From Planctomycetia bacterium (GTDB lineage Bacteria > Planctomycetota > Planctomycetia > Pirellulales > Thermoguttaceae), in NCBI GenBank assembly GCA_030527185.1, contig JAUNBF010000006.1:1-64000 (forward strand): DNA of 64,000 nucleotides, in the 5' to 3' direction. The first letter of the stretch is position 1. Every line of letters begins with the position of its first letter. The position numbers and the translations under genes were made by a program. Under the pieces are notes generated by a model that was given only the letters and a program-made list of their open reading frames with translations, was not told the DNA's origin and ran no database searches. This document shows, piece by piece, positions 5,283 through 12,530 of this stretch.

Positions 5283-6770
5283 CTATTCCAACGGCAAGCC
5301 ACCTTCCGTACTCTGCGTCTGATAAATGGGGGAGTGGCGATAGTAGACTTCCAGCGTCATCACCGACAATGCGGTCATGTACAAACGTCCGCCGCTATCC
5401 GAGTGCCCACCAGCCCGATTCCAACTCCCCAATTCGTGGGAGTTCTGATCCTGAATCTGGGAATTGACCAGTTGGTCTCGCATTTTTTCATTCCACTTCC
5501 GCCACATTTCGCCACCATAGTGACGCATAACCTGCGTGGCGTAATAATTGTAGTACATATCCGCCGAGGGACCTCTACCGGAAAGGTGTTGCACCCCCTT
5601 CTTCAAGGCGGGATGCTCATGTTTCCAGCCGTAATACATCCGACACAACAGACCAATGGCGGTACAGGCAGGAGCATTACCAGGCGTCACGTAGCCATAA
5701 TACGCACCGCTCTCCGACTGAACCGAATCCAAAAATCGCATTGCGTTTTGAGCCGTGGCGGGCGAAACTCGCAAATAGCCCATGTAACCGCTCTTGATCG
5801 CCATCATCTGCCAGCCCACCACCGAAGTATCCCCGGCCTGTCGCGGAGAATAACGCCAGCCACCTCCACGCGGATCCTGGGCACCCGCAATGAAGTCCAA
5901 CGCCAACTGTGCCGGACGTGCCAATTTCTTGTCTTTCGTCATGGCATACGCTTCTGTCAAACAAATCGTCGCCAGTCCATGAGCATACATCGTTCCTTCC
6001 CCCTGATGGAAACTGCCGCCGCCAATTTTGCGATCCGGTTTCATGTTCATGCAAAGATAGTTCAGGCCACGATACACTGAATCCTTATATTTCCCCGTCT
6101 TGTGCGTCTGACCACATCCCAGAAACGGCAAAATTCCCATCGCCGTCGCGGCGTTCGTCGCTTTCATCATCGTCCCCGGCTGCGAACAACGTCCCTTGCA
6201 ATTCGGTGCCATGGTATGATTGTAATTCCAACTCCCATCAGGATACTGGTGACGGGCAATCCACTGCAATCCCAGTGCCACGGCACGTTCGCTGGCAGTC
6301 GTCCCGCCCCCTGCCAGAGCCACCTGTGTCGCGTTACTTCGCAGTCCCACGCCGCTGCCGGAATAACTTCCCAAGGCGGCATTGGCATTGCTCTTCTTCG
6401 TCATCAGCGACGAAAGCGGATCGATCTGAACCATCGCCGGAGCAGGTTCATCCTCGCTCGCTTCCACCGCCACTTCCGTGGTAATATCGGTCGTCACTTC
6501 CGTCACTTCAAAGTCGGTCACATCGACGTTGATTTCTTCCATCTCGAAATCTTCTTCCTCAATTTCGTCCTCAATGACCGTATTGTCATCCGGCGTGGAA
6601 ACCAAATCAGCCACCTGCCGGTTGACTTTGGTATCCATCGTCACCAGGGCCATCACCAACAAAAGGCACGTGTGTACCACCATACTGACAAGCCAGCCCG
6701 GAACACGTGTCAAAAAACTTTCGTTAGCTTCGATATACTCGACTTCATGAGATTCATTTTCCGTAGACAT
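5283..6770 (-). CDS. Membrane-anchored squalene-cyclase-like toroid protein (paralogue C)
   Basis: 495 residues with three parts. A short cytoplasmic tail and one membrane helix (about 26-45) carry Ser29-x3-His33-x6-Met40-x3-Thr44, close to the Ser-His-Leu-Ser pattern of TonB. A strongly acidic periplasmic linker follows (about 55-115). The third part is an alpha/alpha-toroid of prenyltransferase/squalene-oxidase repeats (about 180-480) with QYPDGSWNYNHTMAP and a conserved C-K-G-x-C pair. The catalytic DxDD of true hopene cyclases is not seen, so enzyme activity is unlikely. The ribosome site is AGGAGAGG. It is the last of three tandem paralogues. Confidence 0.8.
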   Translation of the reverse strand: MSTENESHEVEYIEANESFLTRVPGWLVSMVVHTCLLLVMALVTMDTKVNRQVADLVSTPDDNTVIEDEIEEEDFEMEEINVDVTDFEVTEVTTDITTEVAVEASEDEPAPAMVQIDPLSSLMTKKSNANAALGSYSGSGVGLRSNATQVALAGGGTTASERAVALGLQWIARHQYPDGSWNYNHTMAPNCKGRCSQPGTMMKATNAATAMGILPFLGCGQTHKTGKYKDSVYRGLNYLCMNMKPDRKIGGGSFHQGEGTMYAHGLATICLTEAYAMTKDKKLARPAQLALDFIAGAQDPRGGGWRYSPRQAGDTSVVGWQMMAIKSGYMGYLRVSPATAQNAMRFLDSVQSESGAYYGYVTPGNAPACTAIGLLCRMYYGWKHEHPALKKGVQHLSGRGPSADMYYNYYATQVMRHYGGEMWRKWNEKMRDQLVNSQIQDQNSHELGSWNRAGGHSDSGGRLYMTALSVMTLEVYYRHSPIYQTQSTEGGLPLE

Positions 6771-6830
6771 AGCACCTCTCCTTCGCCCATCTTTTAAAAA
6801 GCTCGTTTTTAATATTCTCGCACACTACCC

Positions 6831-6858
6831 ATTGTAAAACCTTTTTATAAATATGCAA
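6831..6858 (-). promoter_or_regulatory. Possible promoter for toroid paralogue C
   Basis: TTGCAT, 16-base spacer, TACAAT on the minus strand in the 149-base gap before paralogue C, suggesting it can be expressed apart from the two upstream copies. Confidence 0.45.
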
Positions 6859-6919
6859 GTTTCCCCCCTCCTCTTTTTACGAATATTTTTTAATATTTTC
6901 TCTGAAATTTTTTCTTTGG

Positions 6920-8143
6920 TTACGGTTTTCTCCAATTCACTCCCTGATAGAGGGGAAGATGGCGAAAATAGGTCTCTATCGTCATGAGACACCAAACCGT
7001 TGTTCCCATACGGCCCCATCGTTCGGAACCGTCTCCCGTCGGGTTCCAGCTTCCGTATTCGCAGCTACTCTCATCCCGACATTGCCTCTCCCTGAGATCC
7101 TCCCAACGTCTGTCTCTCCAAATACACCATTCTTCCCCTCCATATTGTCGTATCGCCCACGTCGTCAAAAAGTTCTCATCAACATTCTTGCCAATCTCTC
7201 TTTCCACAAAGATTTTCATCCACTTTTGCCAATTCGGGTCGTCATATGCCTCGGCATGACGGATTCGACAAATCAACGCCATGGCCGTGGCTGAAGGATA
7301 TTCTCCTGGAAGAGCAGCTTGGGAAAGACGATACGAACCATCTTCCTGCTGCATTGTTTCCAGGAATTGCATTCCAAGCGAAACCGATTCCTCAGAAATA
7401 TTGAGATAGCCAATATAACCGCTCTTCAACGCCAGCAATTGCCAGCCCGTCGTCAGGGTATCTTCCCGAAAATCAGGGTTCTCTCTCCAACCCCCTGTTT
7501 TTCGATTTTGCGAATGTTCGATAAAATCCAGTGCCAACTGCGCCGGACGAGCCAGTTTTTTATCTCGCGTCATGGCGTAGGCTTCTGTCAAACAGAGGGT
7601 GGCCAGAGCATGGGCGAACATTCCTCCTTCTGCCTGATAGAAACTTCCTTCCGCCTCTTGACTCCGTTCCATCGAATCACAAAGATACTGCAATCCGCGT
7701 GCGATAGATTCCTTATATTTTCCATTCTTGTGCGTCTGCCCATATCCCAGCAACGACAACAACCCCATCGCCGTTGCCATATTCGTCGCTTCTTTCCACG
7801 TTCCCGCCCCAGAACAGCCCCGACAACCGGGAGCCTGCGTGTGGTCAAAACTCCAACTCCCATCCGCGTACTGATGACGTACCAGCCATTTCAACCCATA
7901 CTCAGTGGTTCTATCGGAAGACAGATAGCCTCCAGCGAGAACCTTCACTCGAGAAGGTACCGGAAGACTCTCTTCCGAAACGACAGTTTGGCCGACCTCT
8001 TCCCCCCACCCAACCGAAACGGCAGGATTCCCCACTCCCCCACCGCCGATTGCCAAAAGCAGAACCGAAAGGAACGGAAAAAATGCTCTTTTCGGGAGCT
8101 TTCCCACACGCAAATTCTTTTTTTCAGGCATACTACGGATCAT
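6920..8143 (-). CDS. Exported squalene-cyclase-like toroid protein (paralogue B)
   Basis: About 407 residues from the ATG that follows a strong GGAGGA site. An alternative ATG at 8164 overlaps the upstream stop as ATGA. It has a basic N-terminus and a hydrophobic stretch like a signal peptide, and lacks the TonB-like anchor and acidic linker of its two neighbours. The toroid repeats are clear: HQYADGSWSFDHTQAPGC, LLSLLGYGQTHKNGKY and ALATLCLTEAYAMTRDKKL. It is a shorter, diverged member of the tandem family, perhaps the soluble partner of the anchored ones. Confidence 0.8.
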   Translation of the reverse strand: MIRSMPEKKNLRVGKLPKRAFFPFLSVLLLAIGGGGVGNPAVSVGWGEEVGQTVVSEESLPVPSRVKVLAGGYLSSDRTTEYGLKWLVRHQYADGSWSFDHTQAPGCRGCSGAGTWKEATNMATAMGLLSLLGYGQTHKNGKYKESIARGLQYLCDSMERSQEAEGSFYQAEGGMFAHALATLCLTEAYAMTRDKKLARPAQLALDFIEHSQNRKTGGWRENPDFREDTLTTGWQLLALKSGYIGYLNISEESVSLGMQFLETMQQEDGSYRLSQAALPGEYPSATAMALICRIRHAEAYDDPNWQKWMKIFVEREIGKNVDENFLTTWAIRQYGGEEWCIWRDRRWEDLRERQCRDESSCEYGSWNPTGDGSERWGRMGTTVWCLMTIETYFRHLPLYQGVNWRKP

Positions 8144-8160
8144 TTCCAATCCTCCTTCAA

Positions 8161-9642
8161 TCATTCCAACGGAAGTCCACCCTCCACACTTTGGGACTGA
8201 TAGATCGGTGAATGACGGTAGTAAACCTCCAGCGTCATCACGGAAAGAGAGGTCATGTACAATCTTCCCCCGCTCTCCGAATGTCCGCCCGCCGGATCCC
8301 AGCTCCCCTGCTCACAACCCTCCTGACATTGCGTTGCCACCAGTTGTTCCCGCATTTTCTGATTCCATTTCCGCCACGATTCCCCGCCAAAATGACGCAG
8401 AACCTGGGTCGCGTAATAATTGTAGTACATATCCTGCGACGGCCCCATCGAAGAAAGGTATTCCACTCCCTTTTTCAAGGCCGGATGTTCCTGTTTCCAG
8501 CCGTAATACATCCGACACAACAGACCAATGGCGGTACATGCCGGGCCTTTGCCGGGGGTGACGTAGCCATAATAAGCACCACTTTCCGACTGAACGGAAT
8601 CGAGAAAACGCATCGCGTTCTGGGCTGCCAACGGAGATACTCGCAAATAACCCATATAACCACTCTTCAGTGCCATCAACTGCCAGCCGACGACCGATGT
8701 GTCCCCTGTTTGGCGTGGCTGATAACGCCATCCGCCACCCGCCGGGTCCTGAGCATTCATGATAAAGTCCAACGCCAACTGGCTGGGTCGCATCAATTTC
8801 TTATCTTTCGTCATGCCATACGCTTCCGTCAGGCAAATCGTCGCCAGACCGTGCGCATACATCGTCCCTTCCGCCTGGTGAAAACTCCCTCCCCCCACCT
8901 TTCGGTCCGCCTTCATGTTCCTGCAAAGATAATCCAGACCCCGATAAACAGAGTCCTTATATTTCCCATTCCTGTGCGTTTGACCACAACCCAAAAATGG
9001 CAAAATTCCCATCGCCGTCGCGGCGTTCGTCGCTTTCATCATCGTCCCTGGGCGGGTGCATTTTCCCTTGCAACCAGGAGCCATCGTATGATTGTAATTC
9101 CAACTCCCGTCGGGGTACTGGTGCCGCGCCAGCCACCGCAACCCCAAAGCGACCGCCCGTTCGCTCTCCGTCGTCGTCCCCATTCGCATCCGGGCGGAAG
9201 CATTATGACGCAAGGCATAACCACTTTCCATCGCTCCCACCCGTTGTTGGGAAAGAGTTTGCCGTTTGGCCAAAAGGTCGCCTACAGGAACGATCATCGG
9301 TGCGGCGGGTTCCTCTTCCGTCACGCTGGCAGAGGCGACTTCCACCGTCACTTCCTGAGAAACTTCCGAAACTTCCAGATCCGCCACCTCCACATTCCAT
9401 TCCACCGGTTCCAGGAACTCTTCCATCGGCTCCTCCTCCAAAACCGCGTATTCCTCCGGCAAAGAGACCAAATCGTGCAACGGTGTCGTCGATGGCGTTT
9501 CCATCGTCACCAACGCCATAACCAACAGCAATGCCGTATGAACCATCATACTGACAAACCAACCGGGAATTTCCATCCAACCGAGACGTTCTTCCTGAAA
9601 TTCCACCGCAACAGACTCTTTTTCGCGCACACTACCAGACAT
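8161..9642 (-). CDS. Membrane-anchored squalene-cyclase-like toroid protein (paralogue A)
   Basis: 493 residues from the ATG preceded by AGGAGA; in-frame codons up to 9711 lack a ribosome site. The architecture is that of paralogue C: one membrane helix with Ser31-x3-His35-x6-Met42-x3-Thr46 (TonB-like pattern), an acidic linker, then alpha/alpha-toroid repeats sharing long identical blocks with C, such as MMKATNAATAMGILPFLGCG. The motif GCKGKC supplies the conserved cysteine pair. It heads the three-gene tandem and has its own promoter. Confidence 0.8.
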   Translation of the reverse strand: MSGSVREKESVAVEFQEERLGWMEIPGWFVSMMVHTALLLVMALVTMETPSTTPLHDLVSLPEEYAVLEEEPMEEFLEPVEWNVEVADLEVSEVSQEVTVEVASASVTEEEPAAPMIVPVGDLLAKRQTLSQQRVGAMESGYALRHNASARMRMGTTTESERAVALGLRWLARHQYPDGSWNYNHTMAPGCKGKCTRPGTMMKATNAATAMGILPFLGCGQTHRNGKYKDSVYRGLDYLCRNMKADRKVGGGSFHQAEGTMYAHGLATICLTEAYGMTKDKKLMRPSQLALDFIMNAQDPAGGGWRYQPRQTGDTSVVGWQLMALKSGYMGYLRVSPLAAQNAMRFLDSVQSESGAYYGYVTPGKGPACTAIGLLCRMYYGWKQEHPALKKGVEYLSSMGPSQDMYYNYYATQVLRHFGGESWRKWNQKMREQLVATQCQEGCEQGSWDPAGGHSESGGRLYMTSLSVMTLEVYYRHSPIYQSQSVEGGLPLE

Positions 9643-9876: not shown

Positions 9877-10878
9877 TCAAAAATCGAGTCTCGGCAAACG
9901 ATTTTCCTGACCAAAAGCTCGCAACAATTGTTCCGGTGTGCCCCGATACGTCTCCGCCAACGCCTGCGGCCACGGCAAGCCCGCCTTGATTTTCTGCAAA
10001 AAAACAGGGAACGCCCTGGCATCTTTCCGAAGTAGAAAATCGACCAGCCCACTTGCCACACCATACTGCCACGGTTCCAGACGTGTCGTCGCTCCCATCA
10101 TCCCGCCTACCGAATAGCTCCGACGCATGACCGAAAGCGCTTCCCGCTGCTTATTCTTCACTTCCGGGCACGCAGGAACAATCTGCCCCGCAATGTAATC
10201 CGCCATCCCCTCATCCAACCACAACGGCAACGATTTCGGAGACTGATAACGATGGACAAACCCGTGCGTCATTTCATGCACCAGCGTCGCGATAAACCGC
10301 CACCGCAGGCGGACTTGCGAAATGTCACCGTAATAAAGGCTGATCAGCACATTCCCGTCCCCCATCAGGTGTGCCAGTCCCAACGCTTCGGAAAACGTGT
10401 TTTGCGTTTGGAAGAAATGAGCCTCAAACTGTTGAAAATGCGACTGTTGGAGAAAGGCAACCACCATCCCCTTCCCGTACCAGACACGGCACGTTTCCGG
10501 CAGTCCGAAAATCTCCCGCAACCGAACGTGCATCCGTTCCAGATACTCCACGCACTCCTTCGCAATCCGAGGGGGAGCATCCGTCAAATAGAGAAAATGC
10601 TCCGATTCGTACAAAACCAGACCATTCCGCGAAAATGTCTGCCGAATCAGCTCCATTTTTTGTTTCTGCCCTTCGACCACTTCCCGATCCTTTTCCTCCG
10701 AAAGAATCGGCCAGTTATCCCCCCCGTCCAGCCAGAAAACCGTCTCTTTTTCCTTTTTTTTCGACGTTTTTTTCTGAATCGACGTTTTCCCCTCCGGTCT
10801 CTTCTGGGCAAAGCCCTCTTCCCCAATAACCAATGCCAAAAGAAGTAAAAACAGTCTTAAAAACCTTCTTTTTCCCAT
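9877..10878 (-). CDS. Exported zinc peptidase-like protein (gluzincin type)
   Basis: 333 residues with a signal peptide (MGKRRFLRLFLLLLALVIGEEGFA) and a Lys-rich spacer to about residue 45. The motif HEMTH at 201-205, with Glu223 in LDEGMADY 18 residues later, is the HExxH...E arrangement of gluzincin metallopeptidases such as the MA-like peptidases common in planctomycetes. The ribosome site GGAGGGAGAG abuts the start. It follows the porin gene by 9 bases, so the two are co-transcribed. The substrate is unknown; an envelope role is inferred. Confidence 0.7.
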   Translation of the reverse strand: MGKRRFLRLFLLLLALVIGEEGFAQKRPEGKTSIQKKTSKKKEKETVFWLDGGDNWPILSEEKDREVVEGQKQKMELIRQTFSRNGLVLYESEHFLYLTDAPPRIAKECVEYLERMHVRLREIFGLPETCRVWYGKGMVVAFLQQSHFQQFEAHFFQTQNTFSEALGLAHLMGDGNVLISLYYGDISQVRLRWRFIATLVHEMTHGFVHRYQSPKSLPLWLDEGMADYIAGQIVPACPEVKNKQREALSVMRRSYSVGGMMGATTRLEPWQYGVASGLVDFLLRKDARAFPVFLQKIKAGLPWPQALAETYRGTPEQLLRAFGQENRLPRLDF

Positions 10879-10887
10879 CTCTCCCTC

Positions 10888-12324
10888 CTAAAACTCAAAC
10901 TGCCACATCCACTCCACCACCGACGCCTTCCCCTGCTCTCCTCCCGGATTCCCGGCCGCGTAGAGCGTTTTCCAGTAGCTGTACTCCAAACCTGTCCGTA
11001 AAAAAGGGGTAAACTGATAGACGCAGTTGGCATAAATCACCGAATTTTCCCGAATCGACGCTCCTTCCATGTCGCTGTCGAGCGGGTCGTCTTTTCCGTA
11101 ACCGACCGTCCAACGCAGTTTTTCCGTCCAGTCCCACCAAACTTCCACCCAACCTCCGGTACTGTGGATACTTTTGAGCGTCCCGCCGCGTGTGAAGGAA
11201 TAATCCAGACTCTGATCCACACCACCTCCCAAACCGGAAAGTCCCTGACCGTGGAAAAATTCGCCCTGAATCCCGAAACGATTCGTTATCGGAACCTGAC
11301 CGTCCACATTCACCGACCAACTGGTAATCGTGAGGTCGCGGGAAATGCCACCGATCGGCATGGTGTAATCCTGTTGTCCGATATGTCCCGAAATACCGAA
11401 CCGAATCGGATACAAATCGGTATCATTCCGCGCAATCGTCCAACCCAGTCGTGCCTGTACCGTCGGATAACTCCCAGGATGGTCGTAACTGGAAAAGTCC
11501 GAACCGTAAATCTGGCAAATCGCCGTCTGCAACTCCATCCGAACGTGGTTGCTCGGATAAAAATAACGTGCCAATTGAATCTGCGGATTGCGATAGCCGA
11601 TGTTTCCCGCAAACCAGCCGTTGTAGTAATTCAACATCCCCGGTGTCAACGGCGAAATCACATCCTCCGTCTGCCCCACCAAAACCCGATAACAGTCGTT
11701 TTTCATCTCCCAATAGGCATGACGCAGCAAAACACTCGGTTTATTCTCTGCCGTCCCCAATTCCCCCATGAAATCGATCTCCACCTTTCCCCCCATCGTC
11801 GGATTCCCCCAAAATGGCATTTCCGGCCCGGAAAAATCGACACCCAAACGGGAACGTCGCACGGAAACGGTACAAACACTCTGACCGTAAGCATCGTCCG
11901 GCAATGCCCGAATCACCGCGTCGTTGGGCAGGAACCGCGAATCGCCTGCCGTCACCGCTGCCCAAACCATCCCGTAAGGCCGAATCCAGGTCTCCCCTTT
12001 CCGCCACGCCGCCTTTTGAATTTCCTGCTCGATCGTGGCGGAAATCTCCTCCGCGGGAATCGTTTTTTCCAATTTTGTTGGATTTTGAGCCTCAGGAACA
12101 GGCGTTCCCTCCTCGAAACCTTTCGACGCCTTCAAGACCGCCAATTCTTCCCGCAGTGCTGCCGTTTGCCGCTCCATCTGCTCCAGACGTTCCACCATTT
12201 CCGGCGAAACTTCCCCCGCCTGAAGCGACGAAAAACCTGCCCCGACCATTCCCAGAAAGCCTGCCAGGAGGATTTTCAACACGGTTATCGGTATCACGGA
12301 TTTTTGGGAAGTATCTGTCATCAT
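10888..12324 (-). CDS. DcaP-like outer-membrane porin
   Basis: About 478 residues. After a membrane-targeting N-terminus comes a short coiled coil (roughly residues 40-65, VERLEQMERQTAALREELAV). A long beta-rich domain follows with the DcaP/porin-4-type landmarks RRSRLGVDFSG, GKVEIDFMG, LRHAYWEMK and VGQTEDVISPLTPG. The last residue is Phe (WMWQFEF), typical of outer-membrane beta barrels. I chose the ATG of MMTDTSQK; a GTG 12 codons upstream (12360) is possible. It probably admits small anions or oligosaccharides and is in an operon with the peptidase. Confidence 0.8.
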   Translation of the reverse strand: MMTDTSQKSVIPITVLKILLAGFLGMVGAGFSSLQAGEVSPEMVERLEQMERQTAALREELAVLKASKGFEEGTPVPEAQNPTKLEKTIPAEEISATIEQEIQKAAWRKGETWIRPYGMVWAAVTAGDSRFLPNDAVIRALPDDAYGQSVCTVSVRRSRLGVDFSGPEMPFWGNPTMGGKVEIDFMGELGTAENKPSVLLRHAYWEMKNDCYRVLVGQTEDVISPLTPGMLNYYNGWFAGNIGYRNPQIQLARYFYPSNHVRMELQTAICQIYGSDFSSYDHPGSYPTVQARLGWTIARNDTDLYPIRFGISGHIGQQDYTMPIGGISRDLTITSWSVNVDGQVPITNRFGIQGEFFHGQGLSGLGGGVDQSLDYSFTRGGTLKSIHSTGGWVEVWWDWTEKLRWTVGYGKDDPLDSDMEGASIRENSVIYANCVYQFTPFLRTGLEYSYWKTLYAAGNPGGEQGKASVVEWMWQFEF

Positions 12325-12530
12325 TTCCACCCGATTTCTTTTCACTGGATTCTCTACCACTATCGACCATTAGAATCCATAAAAAAAGAATAATCCGTAA
12401 AGAAGTTAAAGTTTTTGCAGCCTTCCCATTTTAATGCCCGTCCACTCCTTGACTTTTTCTCCCTTCTCTGGTTCAATAGGTGGGAGGTTTTTACGGGAAA
12501 AACCAAAATTTAGCTTGACAGGAGAAATGT

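What the first reader, a model, noticed from the sequence alone, without database searches (positions are those of the whole stretch)
5283..9642. Toroid proteins with a TonB-like energy-coupling anchor
Paralogues A and C carry one N-terminal membrane helix with Ser-x3-His-x6-Met-x3-Thr (Ser29/His33/Met40/Thr44 in C), closely matching the Ser16-His20-Leu27-Ser31 face that couples E. coli TonB to ExbB/ExbD. An acidic periplasmic linker and a squalene-cyclase-like alpha/alpha toroid follow. Fusing a proton-motive-force transducer helix to a toroid suggests an envelope device in which ExbBD pulls on or reshapes a toroid domain. Toroid B lacks the anchor and may be its soluble partner. I know of no described system of this form.
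Basis: partly seen in the sequence, partly recalled or inferred. Interest (0 to 1): 0.7.

Follow-up and report, generated by a model that had tools for sequence, protein, structure and literature searches.

The report
TonB-type motor anchor on toroid proteins
Planctomycete bacteria carry many cell-envelope proteins in which a ring-shaped (toroid) domain hangs on the same kind of membrane helix that lets TonB and TolA be driven by a proton-powered motor; in some species the motor genes sit right behind the toroid gene, so this looks like a widespread, undescribed motor-driven system.

Summary
Labels follow transcription order: A 9642-8161, B 8164-6920, C 6770-5283. A and C have one N-terminal helix with S-x3-H-x6-M-x3-T, an acidic linker and an alpha/alpha toroid; B has an export signal and no anchor. 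Across diverse homologues Ser and His are the only invariant anchor residues. With a toroid-only query, about 64 of 74 toroids with an N-terminal membrane segment carry S-x3-H inside it, against about 2% of other first membrane helices. The linkers also peak in beta-strand propensity about 26 residues after the Ser, near the place of TonB's ExbD-binding D-box. In four genomes of three related genera the anchored toroid directly precedes exbB-exbD-exbD. The window's genome has three ExbBD sets but no detected TonB C-domain or TonB-receptor plug. Motor coupling is thus well supported by comparison, though untested by structure or experiment. SHLS-anchored vWA transducers were described in 2025, and here too vWA proteins share the anchor; the toroid head is the new part. 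What it does is open; near-invariant residues suggest a pocket, and B has lost much of it. In the window no motor gene lies nearby.

The parts
8161..9642 (-). A: SHLS-type anchored toroid protein, 493 aa (ATG at 9642); helix with Ser31-x3-His35-x6-Met42-x3-Thr46
9487..9591 (-). anchor helix of A (match to anchor profile A1)
   Evidence: E=8.6e-18
6920..8164 (-). B: unanchored, exported toroid paralogue (414 aa), diverged in near-invariant residues (Y262F, Y307E, S316L, Y360L, Y406D, Y409F, Y410L, numbering of C)
5283..6770 (-). C: SHLS-type anchored toroid protein, 495 aa; Ser29-x3-His33-x6-Met40-x3-Thr44
6621..6725 (-). anchor helix of C (match to anchor profile A1)
   Evidence: E=4.7e-19
5286..6320 (-). 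toroid domain of C (residues 151-495), used as the toroid-only query
9877..10878 (-). upstream same-strand gene, weak Peptidase_MA_2 match; membership in the system not shown
10888..12360 (-). upstream same-strand gene, weak DcaP-like outer-membrane-protein match; membership in the system not shown

Best explanation
A and C are inner-membrane-anchored clients of ExbB/ExbD-type proton motors. The N-terminal helix docks on the outer face of an ExbB pentamer through Ser and His, as in TonB and TolA. A short beta-prone segment just after the helix can be taken up by the ExbD dimer (as TonB's D-box is), and the acidic linker passes the pull to a periplasmic alpha/alpha toroid. The toroid replaces the TonB/TolA C-terminal domain as the head that holds the target, most likely through its conserved aromatic/polar pocket. 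Shown here by sequence: anchor, its conservation, strand propensity, toroid fold (predicted), motor gene linkage in relatives. Inferred: motor binding, force on the toroid, the pocket and its ligand. B is an exported, anchor-less copy with an altered set of conserved residues, perhaps a soluble partner or a decaying duplicate.
For: S and H are the only invariant anchor columns in 14 homologues and are kept together in 38 non-redundant toroid anchors (selected by S-x3-H), where no other position exceeds about 70%. Toroids drawn with a toroid-only query carry S-x3-H in about 64 of 74 N-terminal membrane segments; background 6/339. Linker beta-propensity peak at S+26, 0 of 2000 shuffles; TonB D-box residues 46-49 are S16+30 to +33 (PMC10907165). 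Toroid-exbB-exbD-exbD in same orientation in 4 of 4 members of one ExbB clade (58-100% identical, 4 genomes, 3 genera), 0 of 26 other ExbBs next to a toroid; one copy is preceded by a TPR gene, the layout published for SHLS-vWA transducers. The ExbB there keeps the TM1 Ser that TonB/TolA contact. Own genome: three ExbBD sets, no TonB_C or Plug match. A profile from toroid anchors ranks SHLS-vWA helices first among 949 background segments, and TolA's helix above all non-SHLS ones.
Against: No motor gene in the window or within 10 kb of close homologues. The Trp of ExbB TM1 contacted by TonB is Val/Phe/Leu in these ExbBs. TonB's helix scores only 5.3 bits with the toroid-anchor profile (6 non-SHLS segments score as high), and the likeness vanishes without the S and H columns. 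The H+11 Ser is not conserved. Some toroids are exported without the anchor and keep the conserved residues, so the toroid can work without a motor. No complex model or experiment.
Confidence: 0.68

Rival explanations
1. The anchored toroids are envelope enzymes (the fold is shared by terpene cyclases, epimerases and glycan-active enzymes) tethered next to an ExbBD motor; the motor positions or gates the enzyme rather than pulling a target.
For: About 30 near-invariant positions, many Trp/Tyr plus Asp314, Glu273, Arg462 and Arg478, in 75 diverse toroids; Foldseek neighbours are mostly enzymes; unanchored exported toroids keep the same residues.
Against: No known catalytic signature was identified; Pfam cyclase matches of A and C are below cut-off; conserved aromatics may be structural QW-like motifs; clustering in a pocket was not computed.
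Confidence: 0.18
2. The helix is only a static membrane tether; Ser/His are kept for another reason (helix packing or inheritance).
For: No motor genes by the window's locus; partner Trp in ExbB not conserved.
Against: Only S and H are invariant in otherwise divergent helices; conserved toroid-exbBD clusters; D-box-like strand; same helix on vWA proteins proposed as motor-driven (PMC12204202).
Confidence: 0.1
3. Ordinary squalene-hopene-type terpene cyclases annotated by fold.
For: Weak matches to SQHop_cyclase_C and cyclase models; fold match to 8paj/8pak.
Against: One toroid only; only one Asp (D314) is conserved at 80% or more, so no conserved DXDD; scores far below the cyclase equivalog cut-offs; periplasmic side predicted.
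Confidence: 0.04

Closest known systems
TonB (ExbB-ExbD-TonB) of Gram-negative bacteria
   Same: N-terminal helix with Ser-x3-His (in TonB contacting ExbB), a following D-box-like strand, an extended linker, a periplasmic head (PMC12215075, PMC10907165).
   Different: Head is an alpha/alpha toroid, not the TonB C-terminal domain; no TonB_C or Plug match in the genome; acidic linker; Leu and second Ser of SHLS not strictly kept.
TolA (TolQ-TolR-TolA)
   Same: Same SHLS helix logic; TolA's helix scores above all non-SHLS background helices with the toroid-anchor profile.
   Different: No TolA C-terminal domain found by Pfam; tolB/pal context not tested.
SHLS-anchored vWA force transducers (Williams-Jones et al. 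2025, PMC12204202)
   Same: Same anchor plus new head, same TPR / tolQ-like / two tolR-like layout; vWA proteins with this anchor occur here too, one in the window's own genome.
   Different: Head is a toroid instead of vWA; the paper's text mentions no toroid, squalene or cyclase head.
Squalene-hopene cyclase / alpha-alpha toroid superfamily
   Same: Fold of the head.
   Different: Single toroid of about 340 aa, no conserved DXDD, attached to a motor-type anchor.

Membership tests
TonB/TolA family | N-terminal helix with Ser-x3-His | tested here: met
TonB/TolA family | full SHLS including Leu (H+7) and Ser (H+11) | tested here: inconclusive
   L/M at H+7 in 26 of 38; Ser not kept at H+11; reported as poorly conserved for Ton as well (PMC12215075)
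TonB/TolA family | D-box / motor-box strand after the helix | tested here: met
   propensity peak at S+26, 0/2000 shuffles; binding not testable here
TonB/TolA family | TonB or TolA C-terminal domain | tested here: not met
   Pfam scans show only toroid-type matches; no TonB_C in the genome
TonB/TolA family | physical coupling to ExbBD/TolQR | not testable with these tools
   only gene linkage in relatives
SHLS-anchored vWA transducers | SHLS-type anchor | tested here: met
SHLS-anchored vWA transducers | vWA head | tested here: not met
   toroid head
SHLS-anchored vWA transducers | cluster with TPR, tolQ-like and paired tolR-like genes | tested here: inconclusive
   met in one relative (L087) and exbB-exbD-exbD in four; not met at the window
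Squalene-hopene cyclase | conserved DXDD acid motif and two-barrel protein | tested here: not met
   only one conserved Asp, one toroid

The most novel reading that the evidence does not exclude
Planctomycetes run a phylum-wide family of Ton-like machines in which ExbBD-type proton motors drive toroid-headed transducers (often many per genome) in place of TonB and its receptors, working or gating a conserved toroid pocket across the envelope.
Probability: 0.45. Interest if true: 0.78.

Novelty: new variant of a known kind. Interest (0 to 1): 0.62.

Why it matters
Planctomycete genomes are full of unexplained squalene-cyclase-like toroid genes (127 of 148 sampled genomes, up to 17 matches each) and nearly all carry ExbB, yet the window's genome shows no TonB C-domain or receptor plug. 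Linking the two gives those motors a likely client and those toroids a likely mode of action, and turns both into a testable question: does the helix His matter?

Tried and rejected
Genome-level ExbB presence as evidence: rejected, it is near-universal (147/148). Proximity of motor genes to the window's own family: none. Homology of the helix to TonB from sequence alone: not supported beyond the S/H pair. Link between loss of anchor and loss of conserved toroid residues: seen in B and the paralogue L010 but not general. Terpene-cyclase function: no DXDD.

Full report
Labels. I follow transcription order on the minus strand: A = 9642-8161, B = 8164-6920, C = 6770-5283. Residue numbers in the toroid refer to C.

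Observation. The three ORFs are real and adjacent; B's start overlaps A's stop. A and C are 72% identical over the whole protein. AlphaFold2 on C (alignment of 19) gives a single helix 25-46, a disordered linker 44-153 and a multi-helix toroid with pLDDT about 90. Foldseek finds alpha/alpha toroids and barrels, including single-domain squalene-hopene-cyclase-like proteins 8paj and 8pak with target TM-score about 0.6. Pfam/NCBIfam give weak squalene-cyclase and pectate-lyase toroid matches. B starts with a hydrophobic signal-like stretch and no S-x3-H.

Conservation of the anchor. Homologues from other planctomycetes, 28-76% identical, were collected (N-termini of 16). In 14 aligned anchors, Ser and His are the only invariant columns. 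To avoid circularity I searched 148 phylum genomes with the toroid domain alone: 127 have it. Of 79 toroid ORFs read out, 74 have an N-terminal membrane segment and 62 carry S-x3-H within it by script; two more (L143_880, L145_982) show PSWLVSLVVH and PSWLISLVVH on reading. The others are mainly signal peptides. The set contains some near-duplicates; a stricter set of anchors below 60% identity holds 38, all chosen for S-x3-H, in which the next most conserved positions are a Pro at S-5 (26/38) and L/M at H+7 (26/38), while the TonB Ser31 equivalent is not kept. In 345 non-toroid ORFs with a membrane segment from the same kinds of contig, 12 have S-x3-H in the first segment, and six of these are vWA proteins with the same anchor, leaving 6 of 339.

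Second TonB feature. TonB's D-box, residues 46-49, is a beta-prone segment just outside the membrane that the ExbD dimer captures by strand addition (PMC10907165). In the toroid linkers mean beta propensity peaks at S+26 (1.11 against 0.958 +/- 0.016 in shuffles, 0 of 2000). TonB's D-box is at S16+30 to +33, so the place is close but not identical.

Motor linkage. In G081 an anchored toroid is followed by exbB after about 15 bp and then two exbD genes, and preceded by a large TPR-containing gene. Orthologous clusters occur in G102, G152 and G151. Searching from the motor side, the four ExbBs of that clade (58-100% identical) all sit next to toroids, while 26 more distant ExbBs of the same class do not. 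These ExbBs are recognised as TolQ/ExbB. They keep the TM1 Ser which contacts TonB/TolA and the Pro region of TM3, but the TM1 Trp that TonB/TolA contact is Val, Phe or Leu.

Own genome. Four MotA_ExbB matches, three with ExbD genes, on contigs C62, C17 and C139. No TonB_C and no Plug domain, in a genome 91% complete. Besides A and C, the genome holds two further toroids with S-x3-H helices, L008 and L009, and a vWA protein with the anchor (L041). No ExbB/ExbD gene was found in the 64-kb window or in the flanks of the close homologues.

The head. In 75 diverse toroids 30 positions are at least 95% conserved, rich in Trp, Tyr and Gly, with Asp314 invariant. A, C, L009, L013, L073 and L087 keep all 30; B has lost nine, among them Tyr262, Tyr307, Ser316, Tyr360, Tyr406, Tyr409 and Tyr410. 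A pocket is my inference; I did not measure distances. Unanchored exported toroids mostly keep these residues, so the head has a function of its own.

Comparison. Anchors of vWA proteins score highest among 949 background segments with a profile made from toroid anchors, TolA's helix scores above every non-SHLS segment, TonB's only moderately, and the likeness to TonB disappears when the S and H columns are masked. Thus toroid and vWA anchors look like one kind of helix, while likeness to TonB rests on the motor-contact residues. Williams-Jones et al. 2025 (PMC12204202) described SHLS-anchored vWA transducers in planctomycetes with TPR, tolQ-like and paired tolR-like genes and do not mention toroids or cyclase-like heads. 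Searches of the held literature found no paper on toroid-headed transducers; subscription papers and preprints were not searched.

Verdict. Observation confirmed; motor coupling well supported by comparison but unproven; function of the head open. A new variant of a recently described kind, widespread in a phylum.

Noticed in passing
L041 (G000:C88:11848 region), 1378-2466 +: vWA protein with the same S-x3-H anchor in the window's own genome.
   Followed up: partly
L085:8789-10321 - and L105:8727-10382 -: Proteins with an FHA-like N-terminus, the S-x3-H helix in the middle and a different C-terminal domain; a possible third head type on this anchor.
   Followed up: no
L010:1345-3690 -: Toroid paralogue with a DnaJ-like N-terminus and a membrane helix without S-x3-H; it has lost Asp314 and several conserved Tyr.
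   Followed up: partly
G056, G102, G154, G150: Large lineage-specific expansions: more than 20 toroid genes per genome.
   Followed up: no
L127 (G102:C47): Anchored toroid followed by two exbD genes with no exbB between them.
   Followed up: no
window 9877-12360 -: Weak Peptidase_MA-like and DcaP-porin-like genes upstream of A on the same strand.
   Followed up: partly
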